A DNA stretch of 32,764 nucleotides from an uncultured Pelagibacteraceae bacterium (lineage in GTDB: Bacteria > Pseudomonadota > Alphaproteobacteria > Pelagibacterales > AG-422-B15), in NCBI GenBank assembly GCA_902525595.1, contig CABZHO010000009.1, positions 1 through 32,764 of the forward strand, given 5' to 3'. The notes under the pieces were generated by a model, which saw nothing but the letters and a program-made list of their open reading frames with translations, was not told the origin of the DNA and searched no databases. The translations under genes and the position numbers were made by a program. This document shows positions 256 through 21,975 of this stretch, one piece after another. Numbering within the stretch: the stretch's first letter is position 1; each line of letters opens with the position of its first letter.

Positions 256-1986
256 TTAATCTGTGAATAAGCCTAAGAATTTAAGAAACTCAAGTCTTCC
301 TCCCTCAATTTGAATTGTTCCATTAGTTAAGGCAAGAGTAATAGAGGCTACATTTTTTAAACCCGCAAATACTTCTTTAATAGTCTGTTGATCTGTCACA
401 ACTACTACTTCAGAGTTTGAAGAAGGAGCATTATTTAATTCAGCCACACCTTTTCGAATGTGAACAGAGTAAATTTCATCAGTATCACTGAACCTAAATT
501 CGTATACTTTGTTAATATCGGCTGACTTTTCAGGATTAAGATTGACAGGGAGTGATCTAAATATTGCCTTTAGAGGCGTTGCTTGAAGTTGTGCTGAAGT
601 AATTGTATTACTTGTGTCTTGTACATCAATTTCATTTCTAAGTTCACCGGCAACTGTTTTATAAAAATAGTAATCATTGGAAGCTGTTTGCACCAAAGCT
701 AGTTTGTCTGATGCATCCGCTTTTAAATTTTTTGCATCTTTATCCTCAGGATCAATTGCTAAAATCATATCTGCCAATTCAAGTGCCCATTGATATTCTC
801 TATTTGAAATTGCTAATTTAACTTCATCAAGAAGCTTAACTTGCTTCGAAGCTAGATTTGAAATTTTGATAGCTCTTTCTTCAGGGGATAAAGGGTGTAA
901 ATCAGTAATGTTTCCTGAAAACCATCCTAAATAGCCGCTGAATGTAGATCTGATATATGAGCTTAATGAACCATAGAATGGTTTAAGATAAGGAGAGTTT
1001 GCAAGATGCTCGGGCAATTTGACTTTTTGCACAATCTCATCGGGAGTTAAGCCCTTGTTAATATTTCTGATTGTTTGATCATGTAAAAATTGAATACCAT
1101 CCCTATAATCTGTTAATGCTTTTTTAACATTTTCATTTCCAGAAATGGGACGACTGTGACTTGGAACTAAGTACATAGCATCCAGGGTTCTAATTTTATC
1201 CAAGCTCCTGACCCATTCCATTGGGTTTCTAAATTTAGTACCTCTAATTGCGTATAAATTTGCAAATGATCTGTAGAAATTATCACCAACCATTACAGCT
1301 TCCTTCTCAGGAATATAGACGTATAGATGATCATCTGTTTCACCTGGAACATGAACCAATTCAAATGTTAAGTTGTCAATTTCTAATGTTAGTTTTTCAT
1401 CAAATAAAATACTGGGTCTTACAATACCTAAAGTGGTGGAACTATTAATTTCTAAAAAACCTCCAATCCCTTGATGGATGATTTCTTTTTCTGGAAGCGG
1501 TATACCAAATTGTCGAGCTGATCGCTCAAAAATTATTGGTCTTATAGTTGTGGCAATGTTGTCTAAATTATAAATTATATTTTCCTGAGCATAAATTTCA
1601 GGTTTGGATTCATTATAAAAAACAGTTGCTCCCCCTAAATGATCAAGATGATTATGTGTATATATTATTGCCTTTACTGGTTTATCAGTGACTTCCCTAA
1701 ATTTATCATACAACTCTTGAGCATTTTCTTGAGAACCTAGAGTATCAATAATTACAACATTATCAGATGTTTCAACCATAATTGAATTTGCCAGGCCATA
1801 ACCTACACCCACATAAATTCCTTCAGTAACTTGTATTAATTCTTTTCTGAATTCATTCTTGTGTTCAAAAGACATTCCTTGATCATTATCAAATGTATTA
1901 TTAGACTGTTCAGTCTCACTGCATGTTGAAAAGACAAATAAAACCAGAAGAAAAGCTAATGTTTTTGTAAAAAAAACTTTTATCAT
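256..1986 (-). CDS. SdsA-type alkylsulfatase (metallo-beta-lactamase fold)
   Basis: Predicted linear primary alkylsulfatase of 576 aa, which would hydrolyse alkyl sulfate esters to alcohol and sulfate. Residues 1-21 form a hydrophobic export signal. Cys22 follows it, but the preceding residues (FST) fit a lipobox poorly, so periplasmic location is likelier than lipidation. The metal-binding motif THNHLDHLGG (His111, His113, Asp115, His116) is clear, with a further PGET at about 214-217, GDN at 234-236 and SHSRP at 276-280. NLYAIRG followed by RNPMEWVRSLDKI is typical of SdsA proteins rather than hydrolytic lactamases. A helical dimerisation region and an SCP2-like C-terminal domain (about 455-576) complete the family architecture. 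Asp235 sits where I recall Glu in Pseudomonas SdsA1. No other alkane or sulfate gene is adjacent. Confidence 0.85.
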   Translation of the reverse strand: MIKVFFTKTLAFLLVLFVFSTCSETEQSNNTFDNDQGMSFEHKNEFRKELIQVTEGIYVGVGYGLANSIMVETSDNVVIIDTLGSQENAQELYDKFREVTDKPVKAIIYTHNHLDHLGGATVFYNESKPEIYAQENIIYNLDNIATTIRPIIFERSARQFGIPLPEKEIIHQGIGGFLEINSSTTLGIVRPSILFDEKLTLEIDNLTFELVHVPGETDDHLYVYIPEKEAVMVGDNFYRSFANLYAIRGTKFRNPMEWVRSLDKIRTLDAMYLVPSHSRPISGNENVKKALTDYRDGIQFLHDQTIRNINKGLTPDEIVQKVKLPEHLANSPYLKPFYGSLSSYIRSTFSGYLGWFSGNITDLHPLSPEERAIKISNLASKQVKLLDEVKLAISNREYQWALELADMILAIDPEDKDAKNLKADASDKLALVQTASNDYYFYKTVAGELRNEIDVQDTSNTITSAQLQATPLKAIFRSLPVNLNPEKSADINKVYEFRFSDTDEIYSVHIRKGVAELNNAPSSNSEVVVVTDQQTIKEVFAGLKNVASITLALTNGTIQIEGGRLEFLKFLGLFTD

Positions 1987-3848: not shown

Positions 3849-4448
3849 TTATTCTACCAATTCTAATAGAGTTTCATATTTTACATATCCTGGGTAAATA
3901 GAATCATTAATAATTGATGCTGGAGTGCCTCTTAAACCAAGACTTTGTGCGAGTTTATTATTTTCATCAATAATTTTATTATTTTTTTCTTTCTTTGCAT
4001 TATCAAAAATTAATTGGCCATTTAAATTGAGATTATTTAATAAGTTCACAATATTACTTTCTTTTATACTAGTACCCAATTTCATAAATTCATTATGAAC
4101 TTCAAAATAAAGGTTCGGATTATTTTTCCAAATATTAAGAGCAATTTTAGCTGCAGTTTCAGAAATACCACTAAAAATTGGCCACTCTAAATAAATTATT
4201 TTAGCATTATCCGTTTCTAATAGTAGTTTCTGAAAATCATTTGCTTGCTTGGAACAATACCCACATCTGTAATCAAAGAATTCTACAATAGTAATGTTAG
4301 CTTCTACATTTCCTACTACTGGTAATAATTGAGAGTCATGATTTCTAATTATAAAATTAGCTAAATTTTCTGCCTCATTCGCATAAACGTACGTTGACGT
4401 AAATGAAATTAAAAGAACGGTTATAAATAAATTAAATTTTTTTTTCAT
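3849..4448 (-). CDS. DsbA-like periplasmic thiol:disulfide oxidoreductase
   Basis: Exported thioredoxin-fold protein of 199 aa. Residues 1-23 are a Sec signal peptide ending in YVYA. The active site is CGYC (Cys62 and Cys65), preceded by VEFFDYR, the typical DsbA/BdbD lead-in. The cis-proline loop is RGTP (Pro176), in LGLRGTPASI. The helical insertion between them is consistent with the DsbA fold. It likely oxidises or isomerises disulfides in envelope proteins; no DsbB partner is visible here. Its start codon lies inside the end of murU (17-bp overlap), so it is translationally linked to the MurNAc-recycling genes. Related alphaproteobacterial loci often continue with addB/addA after murU, so this neighbour is different. 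Confidence 0.88.
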   Translation of the reverse strand: MKKKFNLFITVLLISFTSTYVYANEAENLANFIIRNHDSQLLPVVGNVEANITIVEFFDYRCGYCSKQANDFQKLLLETDNAKIIYLEWPIFSGISETAAKIALNIWKNNPNLYFEVHNEFMKLGTSIKESNIVNLLNNLNLNGQLIFDNAKKEKNNKIIDENNKLAQSLGLRGTPASIINDSIYPGYVKYETLLELVE

Positions 4449-5133
4449 TGCTTATATATTCTTTAAGTGCAGCTTCAGTACCAAGATGTAAAACTTTTGT
4501 AGCAAAATTAAACCCTTTTAATTTATTATTTTTTAGACATTTGTCCCACGTTTTATTTATAGAAAATGACTTATCTTCATTTTCTGAGAATGCATTCCTC
4601 TCTATTATTTGGGCACCTATAAATACAAGAGGATTACTATCTCCACGTTGATATCTTTTAATATTATTTTGATCGATAAAGATAAAGTCACCTTCTTCAT
4701 GATATCCAACAAAGTTTTCAATCGAAACCAAAGCTAAATAAGCGTTAGCATCAGTAGGCATTGTGTCCATCATGAATTGAAATTTTTTTATATGGTTTTC
4801 ATTCCAAATTACATCACTATTTATTACTAAAGCTTGATTAATATTATAATTATCAAAAATATTTTTAATGCCTCCACCTGTATCAAGTAAACAATTCCTT
4901 TCATCAGAAATTTCAATGTTATTTTGATCTAAAGAAGTAATGTAATTTATTATTTTTTCCGCTTTATAATGTACATTTATTATAATTTTATCAAAACCAA
5001 GCTTATTAAAAACATCAATAGAGTATTTCAAGAATGGTTTATTATTTATTTTTATTAATGGTTTTGGAGTATTTGCAGAGAGCTTTTTCATTCTTTTACC
5101 AAAGCCTGCTGCTAAGATTATTCCACATTTCAT
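4432..5133 (-). CDS. murU: MurU-like nucleotidyltransferase (N-acetylmuramate-1-phosphate uridylyltransferase)
   Basis: Sugar-phosphate nucleotidyltransferase of 233 aa. The N-terminal signature LAAGFGKRMKKL followed by TPKPLIKINNKP binds the nucleotide and substrate, and INSDVIW near residues 104-110 includes the metal-binding Asp. The length and the neighbouring amgK point to MurU, which transfers UMP to MurNAc-alpha-1-phosphate to make UDP-MurNAc in the cell-wall recycling route that bypasses de novo synthesis and fosfomycin-sensitive MurA. Start overlaps the end of amgK by 4 bp, and its own end overlaps the DsbA-like gene by 17 bp. A different sugar-1-phosphate substrate cannot be excluded from sequence alone. 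Confidence 0.87.
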   Translation of the reverse strand: MKCGIILAAGFGKRMKKLSANTPKPLIKINNKPFLKYSIDVFNKLGFDKIIINVHYKAEKIINYITSLDQNNIEISDERNCLLDTGGGIKNIFDNYNINQALVINSDVIWNENHIKKFQFMMDTMPTDANAYLALVSIENFVGYHEEGDFIFIDQNNIKRYQRGDSNPLVFIGAQIIERNAFSENEDKSFSINKTWDKCLKNNKLKGFNFATKVLHLGTEAALKEYISNEKKI

Positions 5134-6110
5134 ATTTTTAAATCCTCAAGCTGTAGATCTTTAATCCAATTTTTTAGGTCAGTAAAAATTGGATCTTGTA
5201 TATTAATTTTTATAATTTGAAAGGCATTTGGTAGATATTTTAAATATTTACCTTTGTTATCTCTCAAATGAAGTCTGAAAAATATTCCAATTATTTTTAG
5301 ACTTCGCTGAATAGAAAAGAATTTAATTTGAAGTATAACCTCTTCAATTGAAAGCTCTGTTCTTTCAACGTAATATTGAATTAAGTTTTCTTTAAGTTTC
5401 AAATCTAACGGGTTTCTCACATCTTCTAAAAGTGAGGAAAGATCATAAATATTTGATCCAATTAAAGCATCTTGAAAATCAATTAATCCTACTTTCTTAA
5501 CGCCTTCACGTTCACTTAAATAAAAGATATTCTCTACATGGTAGTCCCTTAATACAAGCGTATCTTCAAAAGGAGATATTTTATTATAAATATCATATAA
5601 TATTTTAGTAAACGAATTCTTTTCATGATCGGATATTTTTTTTCCCTTAAGTTGTTCAATATACCACTCAACAAATATTTTTGCCTCTTCATTTAATTTA
5701 TCAAATGAGTATTTGTCTAACATTAAAAGTTTTTCGGGATTTTTGATTGATCGCTTTCTAAGTTCGATAAGTAAATCTAAAGTTTTTTTATAATAATAGT
5801 CTTCATTACTTTTATTAAGAATTTTTGCATACAAATCATTACCAAAATCCTCTAATACCATGAAACCTTTACTACGATCGAGACTATAAATCTTAGGTAC
5901 ACTTAAATTATAAGCTGCCAGAATTTTTTGAATATTATGAAACCTCTCGACTGACTCTCCTTTTTCAGGAGGCGCATCCATAATTAAAACATTCTTATCA
6001 TTACCGCGATAATAGCGTCGAAAAGATGCATCGGCGTTTAAGGCGGTTATGCTTGAGTTGTACCCAGATTCATCCAAAAATTTCAGCAAATCATTAAATC
6101 TTTTTACCAT
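5130..6110 (-). CDS. amgK: AmgK-like anomeric sugar kinase (N-acetylmuramate/N-acetylglucosamine kinase)
   Basis: Aminoglycoside phosphotransferase-fold kinase of 326 aa. The catalytic loop is LRDYHVENIFYL (Asp189, Asn194), and the metal-binding DFQDALIGSNIYDLSSLL follows at about 211-228. The N-terminal lobe contains ADASFRRYYR, typical of AmgK. The enzyme phosphorylates MurNAc and GlcNAc at C1, giving the substrate for MurU encoded just downstream. It overlaps tsaE by 17 bp and murU by 4 bp, a translationally coupled arrangement found across alphaproteobacteria, where this protein is often annotated only as a phosphotransferase. No MupP phosphatase is present in the window. Confidence 0.88.
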   Translation of the reverse strand: MVKRFNDLLKFLDESGYNSSITALNADASFRRYYRGNDKNVLIMDAPPEKGESVERFHNIQKILAAYNLSVPKIYSLDRSKGFMVLEDFGNDLYAKILNKSNEDYYYKKTLDLLIELRKRSIKNPEKLLMLDKYSFDKLNEEAKIFVEWYIEQLKGKKISDHEKNSFTKILYDIYNKISPFEDTLVLRDYHVENIFYLSEREGVKKVGLIDFQDALIGSNIYDLSSLLEDVRNPLDLKLKENLIQYYVERTELSIEEVILQIKFFSIQRSLKIIGIFFRLHLRDNKGKYLKYLPNAFQIIKINIQDPIFTDLKNWIKDLQLEDLKI

Positions 6111-9450: not shown

Positions 9451-10149
9451 TCATTTCCATTGATATCCTGTTCCATATAAAGTGCGAATTGCTTCAAAAT
9501 TTGGATCTAACTTTCTAAATTTTTTTCTTATTCTTTTGATGTGGCTATCAATTGTTCTGTCATCCACGTCTAGTTCATCTCGGTATGCAATTTCCATAAG
9601 TCGATCTCTTGATTTAACAATCCCTGGTCTTTCAACGAGCTCTTTTATAATTTTAAACTCTGTGGTCGTGAGGGGCTCATCTAATGGATATTCATCCCAT
9701 TCACAAATATGTCTTAAACAATCCAAGCGAAGTTTACCAACTGAAATAATAGAATTATTGTCCTCTACATCTCTATCAATCTTAACTCTATTAAGTGTAT
9801 TTTTTATTGTTTCAATAAGAATTTCTTTTGAGAAATTTCCGCTCTTTGTCACATAGCTATCTACTCCTTGCATTAAGCCTTTTAACTTGTCTGCTTCTTG
9901 ATCCTTTGAAGTCAAAAAAATTACAGGTATTTTCAATTTTTCTCTTATTTTTCTGAATAGTTCGTAACCATCCATTTTAGGCATTTTGATATCAATAACT
10001 GCAAGAGATGGTGGATATCTAAACATTCCTTGTAATGCCGAATAGCCATCAACATAAGTATGAATTTCAAAGTCTTCTTTTCTAAGTAACTCTTCGAGAG
10101 AAATCAGAATATTTCTGTCATCATCCACTAATGCAATTAAAGTCTTCAT
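9451..10149 (-). CDS. chvI: ChvI-like response regulator
   Basis: OmpR-family regulator of 232 aa. The receiver has the acidic pair near residues 9-11, phospho-acceptor Asp53 (VIDIKMPKMDG) and Thr80, with Lys102. The residue after this lysine is Ser103, where the usual motif is Lys-Pro, and the surrounding GLMQGVDSYVTKSGNFSKE differs from the standard alpha-5 entry. The winged-helix domain contains TTTEFKIIKELVERPGIVKS and VDDRTIDSHIKRIRKKF, ending TLYGTGYQWK, a close match to the ChvI pattern. It probably controls envelope, exopolysaccharide and central-carbon genes. It diverges from pckA across 131 bp and leads the chvG-ahcY run. Confidence 0.87.
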   Translation of the reverse strand: MKTLIALVDDDRNILISLEELLRKEDFEIHTYVDGYSALQGMFRYPPSLAVIDIKMPKMDGYELFRKIREKLKIPVIFLTSKDQEADKLKGLMQGVDSYVTKSGNFSKEILIETIKNTLNRVKIDRDVEDNNSIISVGKLRLDCLRHICEWDEYPLDEPLTTTEFKIIKELVERPGIVKSRDRLMEIAYRDELDVDDRTIDSHIKRIRKKFRKLDPNFEAIRTLYGTGYQWK

Positions 10150-10166
10150 ATATTTTACCAGAAATA

Positions 10167-10194
10167 ATTATATGTTGTGTCTTTAAAAAGGCAA
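10167..10194 (-). promoter_or_regulatory. Probable sigma-70-type promoter of chvI
   Basis: On the minus strand TTGCCT (10194-10189) is followed after 16 bp by a perfect TATAAT (10172-10167). The start codon of chvI is at 10149, which leaves a short leader of about ten bases. It lies in the 131-bp divergent gap with pckA. I could not pick a comparably good promoter for pckA in the same gap; the best is a weak TTAGCA-17-TATATG pair. Confidence 0.5.
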
Positions 10195-10280
10195 AAAAAT
10201 ATAACTCACAATAATTTAAATATTATAGATTTTAGCACTTAACATAGACTAAATTATATGTTTTTATCACATCCTCAGAG

Positions 10281-11861
10281 ATGGAAAATTCTATAAAAAA
10301 TCACATTATTGAAAATGCCAAAATGGTTCAATCGAACCTTTCGTCTGAACAACTATACGATTTAGCTTTAAAAAGAGAAGAAGGTAAATCGTCTGTTGAT
10401 GGAGCGTTAGTTGTAAAAACTGGAAAGCATACTGGACGATCTGCAAATGACAAATTCTTTGTAAAGGAAGACAAAAATGAAAGCCAAATTCATTGGGGTG
10501 AAACTAACGTTCCGATATCTGAGGAATATTATTATAAAATTGCTGATTCATTCAAAGAATATGCGAAAAATAAAAACCTTTTTCAGCATGATTTAATGGG
10601 TGGTGCGGATAGAGATCATTCGTTGAATGTTTCTATTATTACAGAATTTGCTTGGCATGGTTTGTTTGCTAGACATTTACTTGTTCGACCTACACCTGAT
10701 GAATTAAAAAATTTTAATTCTGAGTATACAATTGTAAATTTTCCTAATCTTAAGATGGATCCAGCATCGCATGGGACAAATAGCGAAACAGCTATAGTGG
10801 TAAATTTAAATGAAAAAATTATCTTGATTGCAGGTACACAATATGCTGGTGAAACAAAAAAATCAGTGTTTACACTCTTAAATTACTTATTACCTCAGAA
10901 AAATATTATGCCTATGCACTGCTCTGTTAACACAGGAGCAAATGGAGATTCAGCAATATTCTTTGGTCTTTCAGGTACTGGAAAAACAACTTTGAGTGCT
11001 GATCCAAATAGAGCTCTTTTAGGTGATGATGAGCATGGATGGTCCGATGGAGGACTTTTTAATTTTGAAGGGGGATGTTACGCAAAATTAATAAGACTCT
11101 CTCAAGAAGCGGAACCTGAAATATATAAGACTACAAAAATGAAAGGAACAGTAATTGAAAATGTTGTTATGAATGATGAGGGCGAGCTGGATCTTGATGA
11201 TAACACGTTAACTGAAAACACAAGAGGAGCATATCCATTAGAATATATTCCAGGTGTCACTGCCTCAGGAAAAACAAATCATCCAAGAAATATTATAATG
11301 CTTACCGCAGATGCATTTGGTGTTCTTCCTCCAATTGCAAGATTATCTCCAGATCAGGCTATGTATCATTTTTTGTCAGGATATACCGCTAAAGTAGCTG
11401 GTACTGAAATGGGTTTATCCAATGAACCTCAAGCAACATTCTCAACGTGCTTTGGAGCTCCCTTTATGCCAAGAAATCCAATAGAATATGGAAACCTTCT
11501 CAAGGAAAAAATATCAAAATATGATGTAAATTGTTGGCTTGTTAATACAGGTTGGTCTGGAGGAGTATACGGCACTGGGAAAAGAATTTCCATAAAAGAT
11601 ACTCGAACACTTCTCAATGCAGCGCTTTCAGGTGAACTTGAAGACCTAGAAATGCGAAAAGACAACAACTTTGGTTTTCATGTACCTTTAGAAGTAGAAA
11701 ATATAGATAATAATATTTTAGACCCACGTAATACGTGGCAAGACAAGAATGAATATGATCTTCAAGCTAAAAAATTAGTTAAGATGTTCATTGATAATTT
11801 TGTAAAGTTTGAGTCAGACGTAGAACAAAACGTAAGAGCGTCAGGTCCAGTTTCAAGTTAG
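10281..11861 (+). CDS. pckA: Phosphoenolpyruvate carboxykinase (ATP)
   Basis: ATP-dependent PEP carboxykinase of 526 aa, the first committed gluconeogenic step from oxaloacetate. The kinase P-loop is GLSGTGKT at residues 229-236, followed by [17 protein letters not shown] with the metal-binding acidic residues. [10 protein letters not shown] near the N-terminus, [16 protein letters not shown] and [14 protein letters not shown] are further family blocks. The ATG at 10281 gives a full-length product. It is divergent from chvI, an association conserved in alphaproteobacteria. The stop codon overlaps that of the convergent MFS gene (11858-11861). Presence fits growth on organic and amino acids. 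Confidence 0.97.
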
Positions 11862-13126
11862 CTGTTCACTACAATATGGGTATCTTTTTTGTATGAATAC
11901 CCTGAAATATAAAAACATATTATAGAAATTATTCCTGTTGCACCGATAGTGATTAATGAATATGTATATGGTGCAGAAGAATTATTAAAAACATAATCAA
12001 CTAAATATCCGGTAACGAAACTTCCAACACCCATTCCAATAATATTCACTCCTAAAATAAAGATAGCAACCATAGTTGATCTTATTTTTACTGGAGTCAA
12101 AGCTTGTACTGAGGCAAATACTGGACCATAAAAAAAAGTTACATTTAAAGAAATAAAAAATAATGTAAAATAAAAAATAAACGTATCGGGTTCAACAAAA
12201 CGATAACTTATTGTCAGAGGAGTCAATATTAAATAAGAGATTGTCAAAAAGCTCATAACACCACCTTTAAAATAATGACTTAATTTATCAGAAAGTACTC
12301 CCCCTAAAATTGCACCAACTGAACCACCCAAAATAAAAAAAATACCAAAAAGAGAATTATATTCACTTGATGAAAAACCTCTTTCATTTACAGCCCACAA
12401 AACCTCAAAATTACCAGCCCCTAGTGGTATATGTAAAAAAATACTACCTACGATAACAAATGTTAAAGACTTTGATTTATATAATGTTGATTTTGTAAGA
12501 CTTATAATTTCTCGAATACTCATAATTTTATGATCATTTTGAATTGAATGATCCAATTTGCCTCTTATGGGTTCAATTAAAAAATATGTAATTACACCTA
12601 AGATCATTCCTATGATGCCCAGTGAAATAAAAACAGTACGCCATCCAACCATAGGACCAAAATATGCTGCGATTAACATCCCAAATCCAACACCAAGAGG
12701 AATACCAAGATAGTATATTGCTGAAGCAGTGCCTCTTTTACTTTGATCATACACATCTGAAAGCATTGAAATTGAGTTTGGGGTTAGAGCAGACTCTCCA
12801 ACTCCAATTAACGCTCTAGCAACGATCAGATGTGAAAAATTTTTTGCAATTCCAGTAAATGCTGTCATAAGACTCCATAAAAATACCCCTGCAGCAGCGA
12901 TCTTCATTCTACTAAATTTATCTCCTAAAACGCCCATAAATATGCCAAATACAGAATAAAAGAAAAGAAAGTATACTCCGGTTAACAGTCCCCATTCTAC
13001 ATTTGTTAGATTGAAATCTGCCTTAATTTGAGGTGCAAAAGCTATAAGAAGGTTTCTATCTACAAAATTAAATATATTAAGCAACAAAAAAAAAGCTAAA
13101 TAAAAATGGGGTGAATATATTTTCAC
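11858..13126 (-). CDS. MFS transporter, spinster-like
   Basis: Major facilitator protein of 422 aa with about twelve hydrophobic segments. The N-terminal half has [19 protein letters not shown], then [10 protein letters not shown] between TM2 and TM3, and [19 protein letters not shown], all typical of spinster-like or ACS-type MFS members. Substrate cannot be assigned; relatives move organic anions, lipids or sugar derivatives. Translation starts at a GTG at 13126, only 3 bp after the nucleotidyltransferase-cupin gene and bounded upstream by that gene's stop codon, with no Met close behind. This close spacing suggests a linked function with the fusion protein, but no direct evidence is visible. 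The end overlaps pckA by 4 bp, tail to tail. Confidence 0.88.
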
Positions 13127-13129
13127 TTC

Positions 13130-13906
13130 CTAAACTCTATTGTAGTCGTCTTCATAGCGAATAATATCATCTTCACCAAAATAGGAGCCAGTTTGTATCT
13201 CGATAATATTCAATTCTTCATCAGTTTTATTTTCTAAGCGGTGCTTTGAACCAGCTGGTATAAATATTGTATCATTTAAATTCAATGTGTGTGATACATC
13301 ATTTATTATAACATGAGCTTCGCCACTGATCACAGTCCAAACTTCAGATCTCTTAGCATGAGATTGATAGCTTAATCTAGATTTACTATTAACCTGAATT
13401 TCCTTAATTTTGTGATCTGCACTATCGTCAATAACTCGATACCATCCCCAGGGGCGAAATTCTTTTGAACCTTTCCAATTCTTTAATATCCAGCTTGAGG
13501 AGTTCTTTTTAAAATCACCCCCTACTCCAAATTCAAAAATTATATTTTGATTATCTTTATACTTTTTCATTTCAGGAATATTTGTAGACGTTCTATCCCC
13601 ACCATTTGCAAAAATAATTACGTTATCGGGAAACAAATCGACAACTTTTTGTATAGCATTCGATGCTGAGTCATGTTCATCATCTTCAAATTCAATCACT
13701 TTATCAACGACGGACAAACTTGATACTATATTTAATCTTTCATCAATTGGAAGAAATGGGCTACCCTTTTTTTTCTCAAGCCACTGATCTGAATTAACTC
13801 CTACGATTAATTTAGTACCAAGTTTTTTTGCTTCATCAAAATAGGCAATATGTCCACTATGAATAGGATCAAAGCCGCCTGTTACTAAAACAATTTTCTC
13901 TTTCAT
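13130..13906 (-). CDS. Nucleotidyltransferase-cupin fusion protein
   Basis: Two-domain protein of 258 aa. Residues 1-143 are a cytidylyltransferase-like domain related to the RfaE/HldE C-terminal domain. It has GGFDPIHSGH (10-19), the HIGH-type nucleotide site, and later NGGDRTSTNIPEM and FGVGGDFKKNSSSWIL. Residues 150-258 form a cupin like the C-terminus of type II mannose-6-phosphate isomerase / ManC: SHAKRSEVWTVISGEAHV, IPAGSKHRLEN, and the end GSYFGEDDIIRYEDDY, keeping possible metal His183 and His222. A role in activating or isomerising a sugar phosphate for surface glycans is an inference. I chose the ATG at 13906, which overlaps the polA stop as TGATG, over a TTG one codon earlier. Next downstream is an MFS transporter. 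Confidence 0.82.
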   Translation of the reverse strand: MKEKIVLVTGGFDPIHSGHIAYFDEAKKLGTKLIVGVNSDQWLEKKKGSPFLPIDERLNIVSSLSVVDKVIEFEDDEHDSASNAIQKVVDLFPDNVIIFANGGDRTSTNIPEMKKYKDNQNIIFEFGVGGDFKKNSSSWILKNWKGSKEFRPWGWYRVIDDSADHKIKEIQVNSKSRLSYQSHAKRSEVWTVISGEAHVIINDVSHTLNLNDTIFIPAGSKHRLENKTDEELNIIEIQTGSYFGEDDIIRYEDDYNRV

Positions 13907-16704
13907 CAATGAGCGTCACTCCAATTACTTGCATCATTGCTATCTACAACAAGCGGAACAGAAAGAGTAAATTTTGGTTTAAGTGCAGTCTCCATTTCTC
14001 TTTTAATTATTTTATTATATTTATCCAATTTGTTTTTTTTGATTTCAAATATCAATTCATCATGAACTTGTAATAACATCTTACATTCTGTTGTAGATGA
14101 TATTTTATTATTAATTTTTATCATAGCTAATTTAATTATATCAGCTGCAGTACCTTGAATTGGAGCGTTTATTGCAGCTCTTTCTTGGAAAGATCTAAGT
14201 GCAAAATTTTTATCCTTTATCCGTGGAAAAAAACATTTTCTCCCACAAAGGGTTTCAACGTAGCCATTACTTCTACAGATTTCTTTTGTGTTTTCCATGA
14301 ACTCTCTAATACCCTTGAATTTATTGAAATAGTTCTTGATAAATTCACTTGCCTCATAGTTTGAAATTGATAATTGTTTTGCTAAACCAAAGGCTGAAAT
14401 ACCATAAATAATTCCGAAATTTACTGCTTTTGCTTTTCTTCTTAAGTCACTAGTTACATCTTTAAATTTTATATTAAAAATTTCTGATGCAGTCATGCTA
14501 TGTATATCTTCATTACTGATAAATGCATGTTTTAATTGAGTTACATCTGCCATATGCGCAAGTACTCTAAGTTCTATTTGACTATAATCAGCAGCTAACA
14601 TGGTATAATTTTTATCAGCAACAAATGCTTTACGTATTGATTTTCCTTCATTGGTTCTGATTGGAATATTTTGAAGATTTGGGTCAGAGGAAGCGAGTCT
14701 CCCAGTATTTGTCGATGCCATAGCATATGATGTATGTATCCTACTTGTTTTAAGATTTATGTGACTTGGCAAAGCCTCCGTGTAAGTATTTTTTAATTTA
14801 GATAATTGTCTCCATTCTATTATACTGCTTGCAACTTCAATACCTTCATATGCAAGATCTTCTAAGACATCAATGCCAGTAGACTTTTCACCTGTTTTTG
14901 TTTTTTTTGGTGGTTTAATCTTCATTTTATCAAACAAAACTTCTGATAATTGTTTTGGTGATGCAATATTGAATTCAATCCCGGTTTGTTTATAAATTTT
15001 TTTTTCCAGCTCGTTAATTCTTTTTGAAAAATCACTTGTTAACTTTTTAAGATAAGTTTCATCAACTTTTATACCGTTCAACTCCATTTTTTGAATAGAA
15101 TGAATTAGTGGTTTTTCGATGTGTGAATAAATATAATTATTTTTTTCTAAATTTATTCTCTTTTTCAGATAGTTATATAGTTTGAAGGTAATTTCTGAGT
15201 CTTCCGCTGCATAGTTTAGTGCGTCATCAATATTAACTTTATCAAAAGTAATTTGTGATTTTCCACTACCCACAACATCTTTGAATTTAATTGTATCTCT
15301 TTTGAGATGGATGTTGGCAAGTTCGTCCATATTATGTCTATTTACACCAGAGTCTAAAACATAAGACATCAACATCGTATCTTCGAAAGATTTCACATCA
15401 ATGTCATATTTAAATAAAATACAATTATCATATTTAATATTATGACCAATTTTTGTTATCGATTCGTCCTCCATAACAGGCTTTATTAATGATAAAAATA
15501 TATTTAGATCTAGCTGTGTTTTTGATTTTTTTCCATTTTCATCAGTGTGCTGAAGCGGAATGTAGTATGAGCTCTCATTATCAAAACAAATTGATATACC
15601 AATTAAATTTGCACTAATAATATCCAGTGAGTCTGTCTCAACATCATATACAAAATGACCTTTATTATAGATATTAATAATTATGTTTTTCAAATCATCT
15701 ATTTTAGTAATTAGTTGATATTTCCCTTTTTTATTGTCAATTACCTCGACCGCAGGTGCTTTTTTTGTTTCGTTTGGGATTGTAAAAACAATTTTTTTCG
15801 TTTTGACTTCATCAAAATTAGTTTCTGGATTTTTTTTTCTAATTCTCTCTGATAATTTCTTAAGTTCTAATTCCTCAAGAAATGGTACCAATTTAGAAAT
15901 TGATAGACTTTTTTTCTTGAGTTCTTCAAGTTTCGGAATATTACTCACATCTTGTTTGAGTGTTACTAATTGTTTACTGATAAGAATATTTTTCTTACTA
16001 TTTTTTATTGTTTCTCTTCTCTTTTCTTGTTTAATCTCTTGAAAATTATTTAACAATTTTTCTACAGATCCAAAAGTATTGATAAGTTGAGCTGCTGTTT
16101 TAATGCCTATACCTGGTGCACCTGGAACATTATCTGAACTATCACCTGCAAGCGCCTGCACATCTATTACTTGCTCAGGTTTCACACCAAATTTTTCTTC
16201 AACTTCTTTAGGACCAATGATTTTATTTTTCATAGTATCAATGAGATTTACTTTTTTTGAAACCATCTGCATTAGATCTTTATCCGAAGACACAATTGAA
16301 ACCTTCCAATTGTTTTGCACAGCTTTATTGGTGTATGTAGCAATAATATCATCAGCTTCATATCCACTTAATTCTATTGATTGAATACCAAATGCTTTTA
16401 CTGAGTCTTTAATAATTTTAAATTGAGGTATTAGGTCTTCAGGTGGTTCTCCTCTATTAGCTTTATAATCATTGTAAATTTCGTTTCTAAAAGTTTTACG
16501 TGCACTATCAAATATCACAGCTAAGTGAGTTGGGCTGATATTTTTATTTGTATCCTCAATTAATTTATAGAGCATATTACAAAACCCATTAACTGCACCA
16601 GTCGGCAAGCCGTCACTTTTTCTATATAGTGGTGGCAAGGCGTAATACGCTCTAAAAATATATCCTGATCCATCTATTAAAAAAAGGTGATTATCAGTTG
16701 CCAT
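13906..16704 (-). CDS. polA: DNA polymerase I
   Basis: Full-length three-domain polymerase I of 932 aa for repair and Okazaki fragment processing. The 5'-3' exonuclease domain (1 to about 290) shows YEADDIIATY, SSDKDLMQ and LAGDSSDNVPGAPGIG. The proofreading domain keeps Exo I DVETDSLD (Asp354, Glu356), Exo II IGHNIKYDN and Exo III YAAEDSEITFKLY, so 3'-5' activity should be intact. The polymerase domain has motif A AADYSQIELRVLAHMAD, motif B RRKAKAVNFGIIYGISAFGL and motif C QVHDELIFEI. It follows the CHCC zinc-protein stop with no gap and overlaps the fusion gene by one base. Confidence 0.98.
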   Translation of the reverse strand: MATDNHLFLIDGSGYIFRAYYALPPLYRKSDGLPTGAVNGFCNMLYKLIEDTNKNISPTHLAVIFDSARKTFRNEIYNDYKANRGEPPEDLIPQFKIIKDSVKAFGIQSIELSGYEADDIIATYTNKAVQNNWKVSIVSSDKDLMQMVSKKVNLIDTMKNKIIGPKEVEEKFGVKPEQVIDVQALAGDSSDNVPGAPGIGIKTAAQLINTFGSVEKLLNNFQEIKQEKRRETIKNSKKNILISKQLVTLKQDVSNIPKLEELKKKSLSISKLVPFLEELELKKLSERIRKKNPETNFDEVKTKKIVFTIPNETKKAPAVEVIDNKKGKYQLITKIDDLKNIIINIYNKGHFVYDVETDSLDIISANLIGISICFDNESSYYIPLQHTDENGKKSKTQLDLNIFLSLIKPVMEDESITKIGHNIKYDNCILFKYDIDVKSFEDTMLMSYVLDSGVNRHNMDELANIHLKRDTIKFKDVVGSGKSQITFDKVNIDDALNYAAEDSEITFKLYNYLKKRINLEKNNYIYSHIEKPLIHSIQKMELNGIKVDETYLKKLTSDFSKRINELEKKIYKQTGIEFNIASPKQLSEVLFDKMKIKPPKKTKTGEKSTGIDVLEDLAYEGIEVASSIIEWRQLSKLKNTYTEALPSHINLKTSRIHTSYAMASTNTGRLASSDPNLQNIPIRTNEGKSIRKAFVADKNYTMLAADYSQIELRVLAHMADVTQLKHAFISNEDIHSMTASEIFNIKFKDVTSDLRRKAKAVNFGIIYGISAFGLAKQLSISNYEASEFIKNYFNKFKGIREFMENTKEICRSNGYVETLCGRKCFFPRIKDKNFALRSFQERAAINAPIQGTAADIIKLAMIKINNKISSTTECKMLLQVHDELIFEIKKNKLDKYNKIIKREMETALKPKFTLSVPLVVDSNDASNWSDAH

Positions 16705-20743: not shown

Positions 20744-20772
20744 TTTAACTTTTGTAAATTACCGTGTATAAT
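20744..20772 (+). promoter_or_regulatory. Probable promoter of the diiron protein gene
   Basis: A perfect TATAAT at 20767-20772 ends six bases before the ATG at 20779. A weak -35, TTTAAC at 20744-20749, lies 17 bp upstream. If the hexamer is used, transcription would begin at or next to the A of the ATG, giving a leaderless message. It also argues against the GTG at 20764 as the start. Confidence 0.45.
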
Positions 20773-20778
20773 TTGCAA

Positions 20779-21975
20779 ATGGTTGAATTCAGTCAAAAAG
20801 TAGATTTTGCAAAAATTTATGTAAAAGATCAATTTTTTAAATTGAAGAGAAAATGGCAGTTATCGCAAAATGGTAAGAATGCCATGAATAAAGATCCTGC
20901 CTATAATGCAACTAATCCTCACCATTTCATTCCAATGATTGAGAAGGATAGATATATTGAAAGAGTTGAAAGCTTTGACCAAATGATCTCTGCTACTCAT
21001 AAACATTTTTGGGATCCAAATGACAAAACATATATAGATTTTGATCAACCATTTGATATGGAAAATGAATACATTGTTGATCCTAGAGTCTTTTGTATGG
21101 AACTTAGGATTCCATCAATTGCAGAAAAACTTACTGAGAAACAAAAAATAAAATTAAACAATGAAAGTTTTAGATGGGTGCTCTCTCAGATTCTGCATGG
21201 AGAACAAGGGGCATTATCTCTAAGTGCTAGTTTATGTCATATATTGAAGGATCCAGGTGCTCAAGAGTATGCAGCAAATCAAACAAGAGAAGAGGCTAGA
21301 CACGTTACTGGCTTTACTAACTATATTAAATCAAGATGGGGATCTCCATATCCTGTCGGACCTACACTAGGAAGAACTCTAGAGCAGATTGTTTCGTCTG
21401 ATGAAGTCTATAAAAAAATTGTTGGTATGCAAATGATGATTGAAGGTCTTGCAATGGGAGCTTTTGGAATGGCTCATCAAGACACTAATGATCCACTACT
21501 TAAAACTCTTTTAAAATACACGATGAGTGATGAAGCATTTCACCACAAGTTTGGAAAAATTTGGGCTGATAGAACTGTACCAAAGCTATCAGAGGCTGAA
21601 AGATACAAAGTAGAAGATTGGTCAGCAATGATTTTTAAAGATTTACTATATAATCTAGTAAATCCTTGGGAAAAGAAAGCAATTTATGAAAGTGTTGGTC
21701 TAGATCATAGATTTGTAACAAAGGCATTTATGGAAGAGTTTGATCGTGACTCAGTTATTAGAGAAGAAATGATGGAGAGCAATAATATTTTTAGAGTTTT
21801 GTGTAAAACTCTTCTCAAGGCAAATATCATTACAAAAAGGACGAAAAAAACATACGCTGAATTCGTTGATATGGAAGAGCTAAACGCTGAGGACGATGAA
21901 GTGGCTGGTATTGATATAGCCAATGAGGGATTAGCAAACCTGGAACGTATTAACCAGGGTAAAAAAGTTGCCTAA
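20779..21975 (+). CDS. Ferritin-like diiron carboxylate protein of unknown substrate
   Basis: Soluble protein of 398 aa from the ATG at 20779. The metal ligands of a carboxylate-bridged diiron site are visible in order: Glu142 in LHGEQGAL, Glu172 and His175 in REEARH, Glu222 in MIEGLAMG, and Glu252 and His255 in SDEAFHH. This E, ExxH, E, ExxH order is that of ribonucleotide reductase R2-like and AurF-like N-oxygenase folds. The N-terminal 100 residues and the acidic C-terminal tail (about 355-398) match nothing I recognise. An oxidase or oxygenase role is inferred. It diverges from the RND transporter and converges on regA, with 32 bp to the regA stop. A GTG five codons earlier is the alternative start. 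Confidence 0.8.
   Translation: MVEFSQKVDFAKIYVKDQFFKLKRKWQLSQNGKNAMNKDPAYNATNPHHFIPMIEKDRYIERVESFDQMISATHKHFWDPNDKTYIDFDQPFDMENEYIVDPRVFCMELRIPSIAEKLTEKQKIKLNNESFRWVLSQILHGEQGALSLSASLCHILKDPGAQEYAANQTREEARHVTGFTNYIKSRWGSPYPVGPTLGRTLEQIVSSDEVYKKIVGMQMMIEGLAMGAFGMAHQDTNDPLLKTLLKYTMSDEAFHHKFGKIWADRTVPKLSEAERYKVEDWSAMIFKDLLYNLVNPWEKKAIYESVGLDHRFVTKAFMEEFDRDSVIREEMMESNNIFRVLCKTLLKANIITKRTKKTYAEFVDMEELNAEDDEVAGIDIANEGLANLERINQGKKVA

What the first reader, a model, noticed from the sequence alone, without database searches (positions are those of the whole stretch)
13130..13906. Nucleotidyltransferase fused to a ManC-type cupin, coupled to an MFS transporter
One 258-aa protein joins an RfaE-like cytidylyltransferase domain (GGFDPIHSGH) to a cupin whose end GSYFGEDDIIRYEDDY is that of type II phosphomannose isomerases. 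Activation and isomerisation or epimerisation of one sugar phosphate could be done in sequence by a single chain. It starts on the polA stop codon (TGATG) and the GTG of an MFS transporter lies 3 bp beyond its end, hinting at a glycan or polyol product with its own carrier. No other glycan gene is nearby, so the pathway is open.
Basis: partly seen in the sequence, partly recalled or inferred. Interest (0 to 1): 0.55.

Follow-up and report, generated by a model that had tools for sequence, protein, structure and literature searches.

The report
Alternative GDP-mannose enzyme in ocean bacteria
A two-part enzyme in a SAR11 ocean bacterium, shared with other marine bacteria and many viral contigs, probably does the job of the standard enzyme that makes the sugar donor GDP-mannose, but with one half taken from an unrelated enzyme family.

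Summary
Window 13130-13906 (minus strand) encodes 258 aa: a HIGH-type nucleotidyltransferase (NTase, PF01467) followed by a type II phosphomannose-isomerase cupin (PF01050). Both sets of active-site motifs are invariant in 52 aligned fused homologues. The fusion is in 31 of 35 sister genomes of its SAR11 genus, in SAR86 and other bacteria, and in 76 of 81 viral loci examined.

Best explanation: a ManC-like bifunctional mannose-6-P isomerase / mannose-1-P guanylyltransferase whose GT-A domain is replaced by an RfaE/TagD-like one. Support: stand-alone NTase relatives lie in operons ordered isomerase cupin, phosphomannomutase, NTase, and within 2.5 kb of GDP-mannose dehydratase (gmd) in 6 of 9 genomes; among 120 alphaproteobacterial genomes with gmd, ManC is in 99 of 111 without the NTase and 0 of 9 with it; NTase-cupin pairing, or a cupin swap, happened more than once. 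Substrate, nucleotide and activity are inferred, not shown.

The MFS link was seen only inside the genus, where fusion, MFS and pckA sit between polA and chvI. The two activities cannot be strictly consecutive: a mutase must act between them.

The parts
13130..13906 (-). Fused gene, 258 aa: NTase + phosphomannose-isomerase cupin; proposed ManC-like GDP-mannose enzyme
13469..13906 (-). NTase domain, residues 1-146 (HIGH superfamily, PF01467)
   Evidence: residues 8-106, E 7e-15; 3glv Z 16.2; TagD 1coz Z 16.0; HldC 5xf2 Z 14.9
13133..13468 (-). Cupin domain, residues 147-258 (PF01050, type II phosphomannose isomerase)
   Evidence: 148-253, E 2.8e-33; Thermococcus phosphomannose isomerase 7zvm Z 16.7
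13850..13879 (-). NTase motif GGFDPIHSGH (residues 10-19)
   Evidence: G10-P14, H16, G18, H19 invariant in 52 of 52 fused sequences
13493..13501 (-). NTase C-terminal serine motif SSS (residues 136-138), at the place of the ISTT/ISST motif of the superfamily (place recalled)
   Evidence: S137 and S138 52 of 52, S136 51 of 52
13343..13372 (-). Isomerase motif S179-x-Q181-x-H183-xx-R186-x-E188
   Evidence: 52 of 52; equals the Ser/Gln/His + Arg motif of type I/II isomerases described in PMC9602691 (passages)
13229..13243 (-). Cupin motif 2, H222-RLE-N226
   Evidence: H222 in 277 of 277 and N226 in 272 of 277 cupins
13142..13189 (-). Cupin C-terminal motif GSYFGEDDIIRYEDDY (residues 240-255)
   Evidence: E245, D247, R250 in 52 of 52
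11858..13126 (-). MFS transporter (PF07690), neighbour in the genus cassette; not taken as part of the enzyme
10281..11861 (+). pckA (PEP carboxykinase, named by eye), third gene of the cassette
13906..16704 (-). polA, upstream gene; its stop overlaps the start of the fused gene
9451..10149 (-). chvI-like response regulator, which directly follows polA in related genomes without the fusion

Best explanation
The protein works like ManC, the bifunctional enzyme for the two ends of GDP-mannose synthesis. Its C-terminal cupin interconverts fructose-6-P and mannose-6-P. A separate phosphomannomutase (in this genus perhaps the second PGM/PMM-family protein of about 518 aa) turns mannose-6-P into mannose-1-P. 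The N-terminal domain then joins mannose-1-P to GMP from GTP, releasing pyrophosphate. That domain is not the GT-A fold of ManC but a HIGH-superfamily domain of the RfaE/TagD type: a non-orthologous replacement in the same order, NTase first and cupin second. Shown: fusion, residue conservation, operon contexts, ManC exclusion; folds are predicted. Inferred: substrate, nucleotide, catalysis, mutase partner.
For: (1) Operon order: in L146 and L149 the genes run cupin, eukaryotic-type phosphomannomutase (PF03332, E 3e-31 and 2e-26), NTase; in L144 a PF03332 gene adjoins the NTase, in L145 the same by eye. (2) gmd lies 30-2454 bp from the NTase in 6 of 9 genomes with both; in the other 3 it is on another contig. 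L228 (Elusimicrobium) has phosphomannomutase-like, NTase, gmd, fcl-like; in SAR86 L230 the fused gene itself is separated from gmd and an fcl-like gene by one gene. (3) ManC GT-A part: 9 of 9 Pelagibacteraceae without the NTase, 0 of 18 of the window's genus, 0 of 13 alphaproteobacteria with the NTase, 2 of 32 other NTase carriers. Class sample of 289: ManC in 0 of 14 NTase carriers; among gmd carriers 0 of 9 against 99 of 111. (4) Active-site motifs invariant in 52 of 52 fusions. (5) Predicted folds: cupin nearest Thermococcus phosphomannose isomerase, NTase nearest 3glv/TagD/HldC. (6) Pairing of NTase and cupin by more than one event: one clade of fused cupins rejected, AU p 1.4e-5.
Against: No activity shown. 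The guanine base is inferred from gmd alone. The genus copy is not in a glycan cluster; the window's own genome (72% complete) shows no gmd at E 1e-40 and one PGM/PMM-family hit. gmd is over cut-off in 10 of 18 genus genomes only, two of which (G015, G021) lack a detected fusion. Four stand-alone copies abut pyrE (L140, L141, L143, L231; by eye) and some phage copies lie by replication genes. Twelve gmd carriers have neither ManC nor a listed NTase. Other guanylyltransferase families and type I ManA were not searched. SAR86/viral fused cupins score only about 50-75 bits on TIGR01479 against 117-133 in the genus.
Confidence: 0.62

Rival explanations
1. A nucleotide-sugar enzyme but not a GDP-mannose one: the NTase uses another nucleotide (CTP, ATP, UTP) or another sugar-1-P, and the cupin isomerises or epimerises another sugar phosphate.
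For: HIGH-superfamily sugar enzymes known to me use CTP or ATP (recalled: TagD, HldE). 6 of 68 or more viral fusions aside, most viral fusions lie beside a GT8-like glycosyltransferase (47 of 69), whose donor is unknown. Fused cupins of SAR86 and viruses have drifted (R223 to Q in many).
Against: Phosphomannomutase, isomerase cupin, gmd and fcl-like genes surround the NTase; ManC is missing where the NTase is present.
Confidence: 0.22
2. A role in nucleotide, coenzyme or DNA-linked metabolism, with the cupin as a binding or regulatory domain.
For: NTase abuts pyrE in L140, L141, L143, L231; some phage copies lie by dnaE, dUTPase, guaB, thymidylate synthase or gp43 (gene names mostly by eye); polA is the neighbour in the window.
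Against: polA neighbourhood is explained by insertion of a cassette at the polA|chvI junction; isomerase catalytic motif invariant; GDP-mannose operons elsewhere.
Confidence: 0.08
3. A true heptose-1-P adenylyltransferase (RfaE domain II) or glycerol-3-P cytidylyltransferase (TagD) that happens to be fused to a cupin, as public annotations of phage relatives say.
For: Nearest profile matches and folds are of these families; S-SSM7/S-SSM6a genes bear these names.
Against: 75 of 181.5 bits (RfaE domain II) and 44.6 of 165.4 bits (TagD); heptose kinase TIGR02198 over cut-off in 0 of 31 carriers or genus genomes, any match at E 1e-20 in 4 of 31.
Confidence: 0.04
4. One reading: a sugar or polyol taken up or exported by the MFS protein is processed by the fused enzyme.
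For: MFS gene follows the fusion in 28 of 28 genus loci, gap -4 to +66 bp.
Against: No MFS neighbour in the two f51 loci and none seen by eye among recurrent SAR86/viral neighbours; MFS protein below the cut-off of every NCBIfam model shown (best 108 bits, cut-off 395).
Confidence: 0.04

Closest known systems
ManC / AlgA / PslB (TIGR01479, mannose-1-P guanylyltransferase / mannose-6-P isomerase)
   Same: Same domain order (NTase then cupin) and the same cupin family; proposed same two reactions; found in place of it in the genomes searched
   Different: N-terminal domain is HIGH-type PF01467, not the GT-A domain; only model positions 358-467 of 467 match
RfaE/HldE domain II and HldC (heptose-1-P adenylyltransferase)
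   Same: HIGH-superfamily fold and motifs; HldC 5xf2 Z 14.9, rmsd 3.0, 134 aligned; 75 bits on TIGR02199
   Different: Below the equivalog cut-off; heptose kinase not over cut-off in any of 31 genomes; sits with mannose genes
TagD (glycerol-3-P cytidylyltransferase)
   Same: Fold: 1coz Z 16.0, rmsd 2.1, 126 aligned
   Different: 44.6 of 165.4 bits; context differs
Stand-alone type II phosphomannose isomerases (Thermococcus 7zvm/7zvy; cyanophage S-SCSM1)
   Same: Cupin fold (7zvm Z 16.7, tied with the CapF cupin 3st7 Z 16.4) and the Ser/Gln/His + Arg motif; S-SCSM1 also carries gmd, GDP-fucose synthase and GDP-mannose epimerase genes (passages)
   Different: No fused NTase; PMC9602691 calls the cyanophage ones monofunctional (passages)
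Phage genes named glycerol-3-P cytidylyltransferase or heptose adenyltransferase (e.g. S-SSM7, PHROG 7878)
   Same: NTase domain 53.8% identical over residues 2-144; PHROG 7878 E 2.4e-27
   Different: In these named phages the NTase is not fused to the cupin; no record of the 50,697 covers 80% of the query

Membership tests
ManC (TIGR01479 equivalog) | Whole-protein score above the equivalog cut-off (372.95 bits) | tested here: not met
   117.4 bits, model positions 358-467 only
ManC (TIGR01479 equivalog) | N-terminal GT-A guanylyltransferase domain | tested here: not met
   N-terminal part matches PF01467; no NTP_transferase (PF00483) match at E up to 1; predicted fold nearest 3glv/TagD/HldC
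ManC (TIGR01479 equivalog) | C-terminal type II phosphomannose-isomerase cupin with catalytic motif | tested here: met
   PF01050 E 2.8e-33; S179, Q181, H183, R186 invariant in 52 of 52; motif described in PMC9602691
ManC (as a function) | Makes GDP-mannose from mannose-1-P + GTP and isomerises mannose-6-P | not testable with these tools
   Context and exclusion only
RfaE domain II (TIGR02199) | Score above the equivalog cut-off (181.5 bits) | tested here: not met
   75.2 bits
RfaE domain II / HldE pathway | Heptose kinase (TIGR02198) in the same genomes | tested here: not met
   0 of 31 over cut-off; weaker matches at E 1e-20 in 4 of 31
TagD (TIGR01518) | Score above the equivalog cut-off (165.4 bits) | tested here: not met
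   44.6 bits
Cytidylyltransferase-like HIGH superfamily (PF01467) | Pfam match above cut-off and HxGH motif | tested here: met
   55.9 bits, cut-off 21; H16-x-G18-H19 in 52 of 52
MFS-coupled uptake pathway | Conserved linkage to an MFS gene outside the genus | tested here: inconclusive
   28 of 28 in the genus; none in two f51 loci; none seen by eye in the neighbour list, which shows only clusters in 4 or more loci

The most novel reading that the evidence does not exclude
A second, unrecognised family of mannose-1-P guanylyltransferases exists, built on the HIGH-superfamily fold instead of GT-A. It stands in for ManC in a SAR11 genus, in SAR86 and in several alphaproteobacterial families, was joined to phosphomannose-isomerase cupins more than once, and travels on marine viruses as an auxiliary gene beside a glycosyltransferase, so that phages and hosts share a separate route to GDP-mannose.
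Probability: 0.56. Interest if true: 0.76.

Novelty: new variant of a known kind. Interest (0 to 1): 0.62.

Why it matters
GDP-mannose feeds mannose, fucose and related surface sugars. If the reading is right, genes now labelled heptose adenylyltransferase or glycerol-3-P cytidylyltransferase in ocean bacteria and phages are misnamed, an apparent hole in their GDP-mannose pathway is filled, and a textbook enzyme gains a non-homologous counterpart with the same two-domain layout. It can be tested directly with one purified protein of 258 aa or a 142-aa stand-alone relative.

Tried and rejected
Heptose adenylyltransferase reading: dropped because the kinase domain is not over cut-off in any of 31 genomes. 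MFS coupling as a family trait: dropped. Loss of a metal ligand in the cupin (HAK where many ManC have HHH): dropped, because residue 185 is H in only 9 of 17 long ManC proteins and Q181, H183, E188, H222 are the same in 277 of 277 cupins. That these four bind the metal is recalled from other cupins, apart from what says of Gln and His.

The four genus genomes without the fusion (G005, G015, G020, G021) also show no MFS neighbour at E 1e-30 (which had no positive control). I read this as assembly gaps; joint loss is not excluded.

Errors and limits. In one search loci L133-L139 were wrongly labelled viral; one search gives corrected counts (277 rows, with the same gene counted again where loci overlap). 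In the cupin tree (few columns, quick method) row L137 carries a wrong viral label but is a true fusion, so the clade test stands. In the NTase tree several 'viral_alone' rows are fusions cut by contig ends, so its two clade tests are not used; it also warns that f51 and L076 are long branches that meet. One search listed matches only down to about E 3.5e-24, so weaker NTases among the 289 genomes are not counted. Genes in neighbourhoods were named by eye from translated sequence unless a scan is cited; fcl-like genes in L228 and L230 are below the GDP-fucose synthase cut-off. The Foldseek list is filled by cupins, CapF first. Six searches for a HIGH-fold GDP-mannose pyrophosphorylase (open-access library only) listed nothing of the kind by title and abstract start. 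A DNA search of named phages with one viral fusion + GT8 pair found no match.

Full report
OBSERVATION. The ORF is at 13130-13906 on the minus strand. The 258-aa product matches PF01467 at residues 8-106 and PF01050 at 148-253. The best NCBIfam matches are partial: the C-terminal cupin of ManC (117 bits, cut-off 373) and RfaE domain II (75 bits, cut-off 181.5). AlphaFold2 on a 52-row alignment gave mean pLDDT 91.3 and pTM 0.61, with a softer linker around residues 131-150. Against solved structures the cupin is nearest Thermococcus phosphomannose isomerase (7zvm, Z 16.7, rmsd 1.5, 101 aligned; the CapF cupin 3st7 is tied at 16.4), and the NTase nearest 3glv (Z 16.2, rmsd 2.1, 121 aligned), TagD 1coz (Z 16.0, rmsd 2.1, 126 aligned) and HldC 5xf2 (Z 14.9, rmsd 3.0, 134 aligned).

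WHERE IT OCCURS. The window lies in a SAR11 genus (titles of close relatives: Pelagibacteraceae single cells such as AG-422-B15). The full fusion is in 31 of 35 same-genus genomes. In 28 genus loci (25 distinct contigs) the order is polA, fusion, MFS, pckA, then chvI in 26 and the contig end in 2. In 5 of 5 Pelagibacteraceae of another family that lack the fusion, polA is directly followed by chvI. So fusion, MFS and pckA look like a cassette placed at that junction. Of the 56 outside the genus, mainly SAR86, with SAR116, Rhodobacteraceae, Flavobacteriaceae and others, 47 are fused. A scan of viral contigs confirmed 588 relatives (limit reached); 76 of 81 viral loci examined carry a fusion, 71 by a stricter domain-length rule. 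Among named phages the best match is the NTase domain alone of S-SSM7 (53.8% over residues 2-144), and no record covers 80% of the query.

BOTH ACTIVE SITES ARE KEPT. In 52 fused sequences, 42-77% identical to the window, GGFDPxHxGH, K46-K47, R57, NGGDR 101-105, E112, G129-G130, K133 and S137-S138 are invariant in the NTase, and S179, Q181, H183, R186, E188, H222, N226, E245, D247 and R250 in the cupin. Passages of PMC9602691 say that type I and II isomerases share a motif with Ser, Gln and His, plus the Arg equal to R408 of P. aeruginosa; the window has all four. Over 277 cupins, 17 long ManC proteins among them, Q181, H183, E188 and H222 never vary.

CONTEXT POINTS TO GDP-MANNOSE. Stand-alone NTases of the same subfamily (43-50% identical to the window) were read in context in 11 alphaproteobacterial genomes. 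In L146 cupin, phosphomannomutase and NTase overlap in one operon, transcribed in pathway order; L149 has the same order. In L144, and by eye in L145, a phosphomannomutase adjoins the NTase. Pfam confirms PF03332 in L146, L149 and L144 and PF01050 in L146 and L149. gmd lies 30-2454 bp away in 6 of 9 genomes that have both NTase and gmd; in the other 3 it is on another contig. An Elusimicrobium contig, L228, has a phosphomannomutase-like gene, the NTase (fused there to a glycosyltransferase-like part), gmd and an fcl-like gene. In SAR86 L230 the fused gene is separated from gmd (555 bits, cut-off 415) and an fcl-like gene only by what looks like ahcY. In phage locus L127 cupin and NTase are followed by a cut epimerase gene, which by eye resembles GDP-mannose 3,5-epimerase (Pfam: NAD-dependent epimerase). 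In 47 of 69 viral fusions with a readable next gene, that gene is GT8-like, most often overlapping by 4 bp; one of them was scanned and matches PF01501. Five of 76 viral loci also hold a gene strongly like gmd; the one scanned scores 407 bits, just under the 415 cut-off.

MANC IS MISSING WHERE THE NTASE IS PRESENT. With TIGR01479 the GT-A part of ManC is found in 9 of 9 Pelagibacteraceae lacking the NTase, 0 of 18 genomes of the window's genus, 0 of 13 alphaproteobacteria with the NTase, and 2 of 32 other NTase carriers (weak partial hits at E 1e-3 to 1e-6 in a few are not counted). gmd above cut-off is in 10 of the 18 (8 of these also show the fusion), 9 of the 13, 13 of the 32 and 6 of the 9. 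PGM/PMM-family proteins are in 70 of 72. In a class-wide sample of 289 genomes ManC is in 158 and gmd in 120. NTase and ManC never co-occur (0 of 14; Fisher p 1e-5). Among gmd carriers ManC is in 0 of 9 with the NTase and 99 of 111 without (p 2.8e-8). The genomes are related (the 14 fall in 9 families, the 9 in 6), so these p-values are too small; and 12 gmd carriers have neither ManC nor a listed NTase.

RECURRENT PAIRING. In a cupin tree the genus and f51 cupins fall on the side of ManC and phage isomerases, while SAR86/viral fused cupins form another strongly supported side; holding all fused cupins together is rejected (AU p 1.4e-5). In the NTase tree the genus lies in a group rich in viral fusions (support 85, below the star level) and f51 lies with stand-alone NTases, with a long-branch warning. 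So NTase and cupin were brought together, or a cupin was swapped, more than once. Other phage NTase subfamilies also sit beside, or are fused to, the same kind of cupin.

MECHANISM. Proposed path: fructose-6-P to mannose-6-P (cupin); mannose-6-P to mannose-1-P (separate mutase); mannose-1-P + GTP to GDP-mannose + pyrophosphate (NTase, HxGH). Sequence, context and predicted structure are shown; every catalytic step is inference.

AGAINST. The genus copy is not in a glycan cluster, and the window's own 72%-complete genome shows no gmd. Four stand-alone copies abut pyrE by eye (L140, L141, L143, L231). Some phage copies are among replication genes. Guanylyltransferase families outside TIGR01479, and type I ManA, were not searched. 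Guanine choice cannot be read from the sequence.

LITERATURE. Only passages were read in four papers. PMC6918029, PMC7678222 and PMC9146016 name phage or viral genes after (glycerol-3-P) cytidylyltransferase and leave their role open; I did not show that those genes belong to this subfamily. PMC9602691 describes a monofunctional cyanophage isomerase with gmd, GDP-fucose synthase and GDP-mannose epimerase genes in the same phage. Six searches listed no HIGH-fold GDP-mannose pyrophosphorylase.

VERDICT. A real, conserved and widespread fusion; most likely a functional analogue of ManC with a non-homologous guanylyltransferase domain. It is not a member of the ManC family (two defining features tested and not met), but it probably works like one.

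Noticed in passing
window 4432-6110 (-): NTP-transferase (PF00483) and APH-fold kinase (PF01636) in tandem, probably the MurU/AmgK sugar-recycling pair.
   Followed up: partly
window 20764-21975 (+): Protein weakly matching AurF-type N-oxygenase (PF11583, E 1e-7), a diiron oxygenase family.
   Followed up: no
window 256-1986 (-): Alkyl-sulfatase-like protein (metallo-beta-lactamase fold with alkyl sulfatase dimerisation and C-terminal domains).
   Followed up: no
window 9451-16704 with L321-L325: Fusion, MFS and pckA sit between polA and chvI in the window's genus; in 5 of 5 related genomes of another family polA is directly followed by chvI: a cassette insertion site.
   Followed up: yes
L002 1-1836 (own genome, contig C1): A second, divergent ManC-type cupin beside a protein that looks like an NTP-transferase fused to a kinase, in a glycan-like cluster.
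   Followed up: no
L051, L052, L054, L055, L126 (viral contigs): Another, distant HIGH-NTase subfamily fused to the same kind of cupin (244-251 aa), in four of them beside a further NTase gene: possibly an independent fusion.
   Followed up: partly
L228:9986-11338: In an Elusimicrobium contig the NTase is fused to a glycosyltransferase-2-like part (by eye), between phosphomannomutase-like and gmd genes.
   Followed up: partly
L262:6715-7422 and relatives in 47 of 69 viral loci: GT8-like glycosyltransferase gene overlapping the end of the viral fusion, usually by 4 bp; acceptor unknown.
   Followed up: partly
L140, L141, L143, L231: Stand-alone NTase abutting pyrE in marine alphaproteobacteria, with no mannose gene beside it; unexplained by the GDP-mannose reading.
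   Followed up: no
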